NCBI GenBank assembly: GCA_945883425.1
Contig: CAMCXM010000001.1
Span: forward strand, 1 to 64,000
Origin: Spirosoma fluviale
Lineage (GTDB): Bacteria; Bacteroidota; Bacteroidia; Cytophagales; Flexibacteraceae
Length of the DNA: 64,000 nt
Direction of reading: 5' to 3'
Shown: one piece after another, positions 12,505 to 20,800 of the stretch
How the letters are laid out: each line of letters starts with the position of its first letter
How positions within the stretch are numbered: the first letter of the stretch is position 1
Translations under genes and position numbers: made by a program
The notes under the pieces: model-generated
The model's input: only the letters and a program-made list of their open reading frames with translations
Told to the model about the DNA's origin: nothing
The model's database searches: none

Positions 12505-12737
12505 GTGAGCGATCATAGTGCAGCAAAGTAGAAATTTTTAGCGACACCGTCCTTGTAAAAGGTTGCCGGACCGTCGGATTTTTCCCTTGAGATGCGCTTA
12601 CACGGAAGTGAACTGCAAAAGGTTTCGGAGGATTATGGATTTTTTACGAAAATTCTGATTTGTCATCCACCGGTCATTTCCTTTGACTTTTTAGTTTTCA
12701 CTTCCTCCTTTTTCTGATCTCTCCGACCTGCACTCAT

Positions 12738-12765
12738 CTGCGAATATAAAATCCCATATTCGCAG
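12738..12765. promoter_or_regulatory. 28-bp palindrome 1 (candidate operator)
   Basis: CTGCGAATATAAAATCCCATATTCGCAG, perfect 10-bp arms. Confidence 0.75.
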
Positions 12766-12777
12766 GAAATCGATTTG

Positions 12778-12805
12778 CTGCGAATATAAATTTTTATATT
12801 TGCAG
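12778..12805 (+). promoter_or_regulatory. 28-bp palindrome 2 overlapping a Bacteroidota promoter
   Basis: CTGCGAATATAAATTTTTATATTTGCAG; TTTG (12774-12777) - 17 nt - TATATTTG (12795-12802) fits the TTTG/TAnnTTTG consensus. Confidence 0.75.
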
Positions 12806-12832
12806 CAATGATGGAATTCTGAATACTTCAAA

Positions 12833-13966
12833 ATGGATATACGAAGCTTTAAATCAGGCGTTTTCAGAAAACAATATGAGTATAGAAGCTTTACTCCGGA
12901 GCTGATTGATCATCAATGGATCATCAGTGAGCCAAAAGTGAATCAGTTGTTAAGTCAGGCCGACCGGAAGTTGGGAGAACTGAATGCATTTTCCTTTCTG
13001 ATACCGGATGTTGATTTTTTCATCAAAATGCACATCGCCAAAGAAGCGACGCTGAGCAGCCGAATTGAAGGGACCCAAACCAGCTTTGATGAGGCCATCC
13101 AAAAAGAAGATTATATCAACCCGGAGAAAAAAGATGATTGGCAGGAAGTTCACAATTACATCGATGCCATGAACTTTGCGATTCAACAATTGGATTCCCT
13201 TCCATTGAGTAATCGTTTGCTAAAAGATACACACCGGAAGTTGCTCTCTGGAGTTCGTGGAACACATAAACAACCGGGTGATTTCCGGCTGAGTCAAAAC
13301 TGGATTGGAGGTGCATCTCTCAAAGATGCTGCTTTTATTCCTCCCCATTTCTCTGAAATTCCGGACCTGATGAGTGATCTGGAAAAATTCCTGAACAACG
13401 AAGATTTATATGTACCTCCACTTATTAAGGTAGCGCTCGCACATTACCAGTTCGAAACCATCCACCCTTTTTTGGATGGGAATGGTCGACTGGGCAGGCT
13501 TCTGATCACCTTATATCTGGTGAGCAACCAAATCCTAAGCAAGCCCACCTTGTATCTATCCGATTTTTTCGAACGAAACCGAAATCTGTACTATGACAAT
13601 CTGATGTTGGTAAGAACACGTGATGATTTGACTCAATGGATCACCTTTTTCCTCGTTGGAGTTTTGGAGACCGCTCAGAATTCAATCAATACATTTCATT
13701 CTATCCTTGCTTTACGAAAAGCAGTAGAAGAAGGCAAAATCATCACTCTGGGTAAAAGAGCTCCTCTTGCGATGAAACTATTGAAGTATCTGTACACAAA
13801 ACCGATCGTCGATGCCAATGAAGTGTCGGAATACCTGGAGGTAACCATCTCAACTTCGCATCGGCTGATTCAAGACTTACAACGACTGGAAATCCTTCAG
13901 GAGCAGACAGGCTTTAAGCGAAACCGGATTTTCATTTTTGAAGACTACCTTAAGCTATTCAGATAA
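12833..13966 (+). CDS. Fic family protein, class II, with C-terminal winged helix-like region
   Basis: HPFLDGNGRLGR Fic motif; SSRIEGTQ inhibitory-helix motif N-terminal to it; C-terminal ANEVSEYLEVTISTSHRLIQDLQRLEIL wHTH-like. Confidence 0.95.
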   Translation: MDIRSFKSGVFRKQYEYRSFTPELIDHQWIISEPKVNQLLSQADRKLGELNAFSFLIPDVDFFIKMHIAKEATLSSRIEGTQTSFDEAIQKEDYINPEKKDDWQEVHNYIDAMNFAIQQLDSLPLSNRLLKDTHRKLLSGVRGTHKQPGDFRLSQNWIGGASLKDAAFIPPHFSEIPDLMSDLEKFLNNEDLYVPPLIKVALAHYQFETIHPFLDGNGRLGRLLITLYLVSNQILSKPTLYLSDFFERNRNLYYDNLMLVRTRDDLTQWITFFLVGVLETAQNSINTFHSILALRKAVEEGKIITLGKRAPLAMKLLKYLYTKPIVDANEVSEYLEVTISTSHRLIQDLQRLEILQEQTGFKRNRIFIFEDYLKLFR

Positions 13967-13985
13967 TCTTCCGGCAAGCGGATCA

Positions 13986-14087
13986 CCTTTTTCTGATCTC
14001 CCCAAACCTGCACTCATCTGCGAATATAAAATCCCATATTCGCAGGAAATCGATTTGCTGCGAATATAAATTTTTATGTTCGCAGCA
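13986..14087 (+). repeat. Downstream copy of ~100-bp direct repeat flanking the Fic gene
   Basis: Same two 28-bp palindromes at 14018-14045 and 14058-14085; -7 box changed to TATGTTCG. Confidence 0.95.
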
Positions 14088-14304
14088 AAACCCCAATTCT
14101 GAGCCAGAATCGTACTTTCCGAAAAACCCACTTTATCCGGAATGATCCGAAAACCAGCAAGCCACCCCAACCCAAAAATCATCCCTTTGAACGTCGAACC
14201 TTCAACTTTACACCACCTCCCATTATTTTTCTTCCAAACCTTCGGATTCGGTCCGGCCCTTCCTATTTTTGCCGGTTCGTCGTCGTATTAACAAACACCG
14301 GTCC

Positions 14305-20324: not shown

Positions 20325-20507
20325 ATGATTACAAAAGAAAAGTTGATCGAAACGATTCAACATTTACCAACCAATTTTTCTATGGAAGAAGTGTATGAGA
20401 GTCTTCTGCTTCTGGAGAAAATAGAAAAAGGGCTCCAGGATAGTGCCGAGGGTAAAGTGATTGCAGAGATCGAATTGGACTCACATTTACCGGCATGGTT
20501 GGTATAA
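20325..20507 (+). CDS. Antitoxin-like protein (type II TA)
   Basis: 60 aa; similar to 3970-4152; overlaps toxin start. Confidence 0.78.
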   Translation: MITKEKLIETIQHLPTNFSMEEVYESLLLLEKIEKGLQDSAEGKVIAEIELDSHLPAWLV

Positions 20508-20800
20508 ATTGGACGGAGAACGCAAAGAATGACCTGATATCAATCGCTGAGTTCATTGCAAAAGACTCAATAAAATTTGCCCGCATCACGGTCAGAGAAA
20601 TCAGACTGGCTACCCATAATTTAAAAAACCTGCCAAACCTGGGCAGGATTGTTCCGGAGGTAAACGATCAACGCATCAGGGAGATAATCCATAAAAATTA
20701 CCGGATCATTTATTGGGTCAAAAATGCGGAAACGATTGAGATTCTGACCGTTCACCATTCCGCTAAAATCCTATTCACCGAAACCTTTCGCAAATTCTGA
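20495..20800 (+). CDS. ParE/RelE-family toxin
   Basis: INWTENAKNDLISIAEFIAKDS...NLPNLGRIVPEVNDQRIREIIHKNYRIIYWV typical RelE/ParE pattern. Confidence 0.88.
   Translation: MVGINWTENAKNDLISIAEFIAKDSIKFARITVREIRLATHNLKNLPNLGRIVPEVNDQRIREIIHKNYRIIYWVKNAETIEILTVHHSAKILFTETFRKF

What the first reader, a model, noticed from the sequence alone, without database searches (positions are those of the whole stretch)
12707..14087. Fic gene bracketed by ~100-bp direct repeats, each holding two 28-bp palindromes
Sequence shows a 67-nt identical core (12731-12797 = 14011-14077) on both sides of a complete class II Fic gene. Each copy has CTGCGAATATAAAATCCCATATTCGCAG and a second CTGCGAATAT... palindrome 40 bp on. 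Fic proteins of this class often carry a C-terminal winged helix, as this one appears to. Inference: the palindromes are operators for the Fic protein itself, and the direct repeats mark a mobile or recombination-prone cassette, or a site that loops DNA across the gene.
Basis: partly seen in the sequence, partly recalled or inferred. Interest (0 to 1): 0.72.

Follow-up and report, generated by a model that had tools for sequence, protein, structure and literature searches.

The report
Self-repressing Fic gene, a mobile single-gene cassette
A toxin-like bacterial enzyme gene (Fic) sits between two copies of what look like its own DNA on/off switches, and relatives show that this gene with its switch hops between genomes as one gene-sized unit that can insert at the ends of housekeeping genes.

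Summary
In detail: a 97-nt direct repeat (92%; identical core 72 nt) brackets a complete 377-aa class II Fic gene, and each copy holds two palindromes 40 bp apart. The motif occurs only at these four places in the 3.7-Mb genome. The operator reading is strongly supported by computation. Many orthologs across phyla carry the same palindrome geometry upstream, with bases that differ by clade. The recognition helix of the Fic winged helix (S340, R344) tracks those bases better than any other part of the protein. Where a Bacteroidota-type -7 box is found, the operator usually covers or abuts it. CccR (Yersinia) is an experimental precedent for such autorepression. The mobility reading holds for the family: about 20% of orthologs, against 2.6% of ordinary genes, are bracketed by direct repeats. 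Two empty sites (lepA, pyrC) show insertion of operator+fic with target duplication of about 47 and 100 bp. In the window, a same-genus genome has the locus with neither fic nor palindrome. Here, however, the repeat is the operator pair itself, not a duplicated target. The downstream copy lacks the promoter box. It is probably a second operator left by cassette duplication or fic-next-to-fic insertion; looping is possible but untested.

The parts
12707..12822 (+). upstream copy of the direct repeat (operator/promoter region of fic)
12738..12765 (.). operator palindrome 1, CTGCGAATATAAAATCCCATATTCGCAG
   Evidence: ortholog geometry
12774..12777 (+). putative -33 element TTTG (Bacteroidota type)
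   Evidence: sequence
12778..12805 (.). operator palindrome 2, CTGCGAATATAAATTTTTATATTTGCAG
12795..12802 (+). putative -7 box TATATTTG, inside the gene-proximal operator half-site
   Evidence: (same offset in 16 loci)
12833..13966 (+). fic: class II Fic (N-terminal inhibitory motif, Fic domain) with C-terminal winged helix-turn-helix
13847..13885 (+). codons of the recognition helix, residues 339-351 (S340 and R344 covary with operator bases)
13986..14102 (+). downstream copy of the direct repeat
14018..14045 (.). operator palindrome 3 (identical to palindrome 1)
14058..14085 (.). operator palindrome 4; gene-proximal half-site reads TATGTTCG, so no -7 box

Best explanation
This is a self-contained, autorepressed Fic cassette. 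A dimer of the Fic AMP-transferase uses its C-terminal winged helix to bind paired palindromes (10-nt half-sites, 6-nt spacer, two palindromes 40 bp apart) that cover its own promoter, and so keeps its own expression low (binding inferred from covariation and precedent). The unit operator+fic moves horizontally as one gene-sized piece and arrived here between a small ORF and pcrA (shown: absent at this locus in a same-genus genome). The second operator pair behind the gene is a duplicate of the first, most likely from cassette tandem duplication or fic-next-to-fic insertion followed by loss of the other gene (inferred). It can probably still bind Fic but lacks the promoter box.
For: Motif private to fic. 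Same geometry upstream of orthologs in many phyla, with clade-specific bases. S340 and R344 are the top 2 of 270 variable columns. R344 goes with G at half-site position 9 in 28 of 29 loci, against 1 of 31 without Arg. In a partial Mantel test the recognition-helix windows (residues 336-346) are the best of 369, r 0.46 against at most 0.33 outside the winged helix, 0 of 2000 permutations. The model places these residues at helix 339-351 of a winged HTH. The -7 box lies in or next to the operator in most operator loci that have one. CccR and CbFic2 precedents. Mobility: flank repeats 20/102 versus 8/311 ORFs, two empty sites, locus without fic in G001. L152 is target-operator-fic-operator-target. 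Fic C-terminal remnants lie upstream of fic in L149 and L016.
Against: Few independent changes on the tree (about 4), so the tree-corrected pair test has no power. No binding data for this clade. No fic remnant behind the second operator of the window, no outer target duplication, and no genome with a solo repeat, so the origin of the second copy is not shown.
Confidence: 0.72

Rival explanations
1. The two operator pairs are a functional two-ended arrangement: Fic bound at both ends loops the 1.28-kb DNA and tightens repression or insulates pcrA.
For: Operator-type arrays occur on both sides in at least three other orthologs, with diverged but still palindromic copies (L067, L152, L163), and in distant Fic clades (L096, L103). 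In L067 the downstream array lies between convergent genes, so it serves no other promoter.
Against: Most operator loci have the array on one side only. In the window the second copy is 92% identical including non-palindromic flanks, as expected of a recent duplication without selection for looping.
Confidence: 0.3
2. The direct repeats are a target-site duplication of the fic insertion itself.
For: Such duplications exist around fic elsewhere: lepA 47 bp and pyrC about 100 bp with empty sites, and L169 172 bp.
Against: In those loci the duplicated DNA is host sequence outside the operator; here it is the operator, which has the clade motif of fic relatives at other loci (L006, L148, L149) and is absent from the fic-free locus in G001.
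Confidence: 0.1
3. The palindromes bind a host regulator, or act as recombination sites (attC/REP-like), not as Fic operators.
For: Perfect palindromes bracketing a gene resemble cassette ends.
Against: The motif is private to fic and changes with the Fic recognition helix. The eight neighbouring genes scanned are housekeeping plus a ParE toxin, with no recombinase. The operator geometry lies upstream only in most loci.
Confidence: 0.06
4. The downstream operator controls pcrA.
For: It lies between fic and pcrA. In L041 and L073 (restriction-modification-like gene clusters) the operator lies downstream of fic only, and in L052/L053 palindromes of another sequence class lie between fic and hsdR.
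Against: A putative pcrA -7 box (TATTTTTG, about 14268) is some 180 bp away, and same-genus pcrA genes have no such site.
Confidence: 0.1

Closest known systems
CccR of Yersinia pseudotuberculosis (PMC9755527)
   Same: Class II Fic with C-terminal HTH; represses its own promoter through an inverted-repeat operator near the -35/-10 boxes; needs the dimer.
   Different: Half-sites AGATAATCAT 26 bp apart, one pair; here 10-nt half-sites 6 bp apart in two palindromes 40 bp apart, plus a second set behind the gene. Among solved structures SoFic is closer by sequence and fold.
SoFic of Shewanella oneidensis (3EQX/3ZCN) and CbFic2 of Coxiella (8CIL)
   Same: SoFic is the closest solved fold; both have the same domain order, with the C-terminal winged HTH.
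   Different: About 29% and 20% identity; for SoFic DNA binding had not been shown, and for CbFic2 no specific site was known (PMC10628234).
Insertion with long target duplication, described for restriction-modification genes in Helicobacter (own knowledge: Nobusato et al. 2000; the phrase appears in papers listed)
   Same: Gene-sized insertion without a recombinase, flanked by long direct repeats of target DNA; single target copy in the empty site.
   Different: Unit is operator + fic; several targets are gene 3' ends with the duplication ending at or within 15 nt of the stop codon.

Membership tests
Class II Fic protein with C-terminal winged HTH | Fic_N and Fic domains | tested here: met
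   PF13784 and PF02661 well above cut-off
Class II Fic protein with C-terminal winged HTH | Fic motif HPFx[D/E]GN[G/K]R and N-terminal inhibitory (S/T)xxxE(G/N) | tested here: met
   HPFLDGNGRLGR and SSRIEG in the ORF; key columns invariant or nearly so in 30 orthologs
Class II Fic protein with C-terminal winged HTH | winged HTH at the C-terminus | tested here: met
   model helices 303-322, 328-335, 339-351 and wing strands 356-359/365-368, mean pLDDT 89; SoFic best fold match
Autorepressing Fic regulator (CccR-like) | palindromic operator overlapping its own promoter | tested here: met
   (sequence level)
Autorepressing Fic regulator (CccR-like) | binding of the operator by the protein | tested here: inconclusive
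   covariation only
Autorepressing Fic regulator (CccR-like) | repression in vivo | not testable with these tools
   needs a reporter assay
Insertion with long target duplication (fic family) | single target copy in an empty site of a relative | tested here: met
   lepA L178 vs L181; pyrC L183 vs L187
Insertion with long target duplication (this window) | direct repeat is target DNA present once in the empty site | tested here: not met
   G001 locus has no copy; no outer repeat
Transposon or integron cassette | recombinase nearby, or conserved terminal sequences/attC | tested here: not met
   no recombinase among the eight neighbouring genes scanned; junctions of several inserted loci share no terminal motif by eye

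The most novel reading that the evidence does not exclude
Fic-winged-helix genes are minimal single-gene mobile elements whose own protein-operator system takes part in their spread, with the operator arrays at both ends acting as element ends.
Probability: 0.07. Interest if true: 0.85.

Novelty: new variant of a known kind. Interest (0 to 1): 0.56.

Why it matters
It gives a readable protein-DNA specificity code (S340 and R344 against half-site bases) for a widespread, mostly unstudied group of AMP-transferases. It predicts that they autoregulate like toxin-antitoxin or restriction-control genes. It also documents single-gene insertion with long target duplication, with empty sites, outside restriction-modification genes. 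Both claims can be tested directly in laboratory strains.

Tried and rejected
Simple target-site duplication for the window (G001 empty locus has no palindrome). Outer target duplication around both operators (best outer repeat 20 nt with 4 mismatches). Fic remnant behind the second operator (none). Solo palindromes in other genomes (three weak single matches, none near fic). Tree-corrected pair test of R344 and G9 (too few independent changes). Other Pedobacter genomes for L067 empty sites could not be drawn, and G520, the only other genome held in the family of L169's host, has just a 36%-identical homologue of the target gene, so it gave no usable empty site.

Full report
What is there. The repeat is real and private to this locus. 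12726-12822 and 14006-14102 match at 92% over 97 nt, with a 72-nt identical core, and are extended left to 12707/13986 over a 1-nt indel. Each copy contains two palindromes, centre to centre 40 bp. Four matches were found in the window against 0.04 expected. The own genome holds these four and one poor match. 398 Bacteroidota genomes yielded three unrelated single matches. The gene between is an intact 377-aa class II Fic, predicted with high confidence to end in a winged HTH whose recognition helix is 339-351. SoFic is the nearest solved fold.

The palindromes look like Fic operators. Eighty orthologs of 54-75% identity were fetched from many phyla, and 36 more from searches of related genomes. 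Many have palindromes just upstream with the same layout: about 10-nt half-sites, a 6-nt spacer, and a second palindrome 40-41 bp away. The bases differ by clade: TGCRAATATA, TTTAACTATA, GTAAAATAAG, CTAAACTAAG and others. If the protein reads its own site, the recognition helix should change with the bases, and it does. Of 270 variable columns, S340 and R344, one helix turn apart in the recognition helix, are the two most associated with half-site bases. Arg344 goes with G at half-site position 9 in 28 of 29 loci, against 1 of 31 without Arg. Controlling for whole-protein distance, the best of 369 nine-residue windows starts at residue 337 (r 0.46; best window outside the winged helix 0.33; 0 of 2000 permutations). 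Clade structure limits this: only about four changes of each trait occur on the tree, and the independent-pair test has no power.

Link to the promoter. The Bacteroidota -7 box TAnnTTTG lies within 75 nt upstream of the start in 31 of 52 operator loci, against a background of 0.027 per 65 bp. In 16 it sits at exactly +7 from the operator centre, and in nine at +13 to +15. In the window it is TATATTTG at 12795-12802, inside the gene-proximal half-site. The same position in the downstream copy reads TATGTTCG, so that copy is operator without promoter. Repression by occlusion follows. CccR of Yersinia, also a class II Fic with a C-terminal HTH, was shown to repress itself through an inverted-repeat operator near the promoter boxes (PMC9755527); CbFic2 binds DNA through its winged HTH (PMC10628234).

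Mobility of the family. Direct repeats bracket fic in 20 of 102 orthologous loci, against 2 of 130 random segments and 8 of 311 ordinary ORFs (Fisher p 8e-8 against ORFs). A few of the 20 are the operator-type repeats discussed below. In several loci the repeat is the 3' end of the upstream gene, and in seven it ends at or within 15 nt of the stop codon: L169, L166 (pyrC), L164, L157/L158 (lepA), L087 and L050; older, diverged cases include L065 (hsdM), L023 and L076 (groEL). Same-genus genomes supply empty sites. The lepA end is single in G526 and doubled around fic in G637 (about 47 bp); the pyrC end is single in G830 and doubled in G791 (about 100 bp). Between the repeats there is operator plus fic and little else, and no shared terminal motif was seen by eye. 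In distant Fic clades 6 of 21 loci also show flank repeats. A mechanism is not shown. In the gene-end cases the duplication leaves the target gene whole, so selection for insertions that keep it intact is a sufficient reason for the stop-codon edge; L152, where the duplicated DNA holds a gene 5' end, fits that.

The window itself. In same-genus G001 the esterase and pcrA genes are adjacent with neither fic nor palindrome, and no palindrome lies in the 1.5 kb upstream of pcrA in G002 and G003, so gain in this lineage is the simplest reading. The repeat here is the operator pair, not host DNA, and no outer duplication is seen. Operator-type arrays on both sides also occur in L067, L152 and L163 and in the distant clades L096 and L103. 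L152 is target-operator-fic-operator-target, so a two-ended cassette can be the inserted unit. Fic C-terminal remnants upstream of fic in L149 and L016 show that fic next to fic occurs, including in a close relative of the window gene. I therefore favour duplication of the cassette or insertion beside an older fic, with one gene lost, and leave a looping role open.

Limits. Most genomes are draft MAGs. The repeat controls are ordinary genes, not other mobile single genes. Operator function and repression are inferred. No paper on fic cassettes with long target duplication was found in the library searched, which is not proof of absence.

Noticed in passing
L157/L158, L166, L169, L164, L087, L050, L065, L023, L076: fic inserted at 3' ends of lepA, pyrC, hsdM, groEL, a relaxase, a reverse-transcriptase gene and others, with duplication of the gene end; empty sites found for lepA and pyrC.
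   Followed up: yes
L052, L053 (also L041, L073): In restriction-modification operons palindromes lie behind fic; in L052/L053 they precede hsdR, suggesting that Fic may control the restriction gene.
   Followed up: partly
L149:1248-1352, L016:2355-2423: C-terminal fic remnants upstream of an intact fic gene.
   Followed up: partly
L096 and L103, both flanks of a distant fic: Long palindromic arrays on both sides of fic; in L103 they include TTATCCACA, which resembles a DnaA box.
   Followed up: no
window 20495-20800: ParE toxin gene (PF05016) among housekeeping genes (guaB, purD).
   Followed up: no
L152 both flanks: target duplication holds the 5' end of a gene read from the minus strand (begins MTNTICPYPGLRPF), so gene 5' ends are also hit.
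   Followed up: partly
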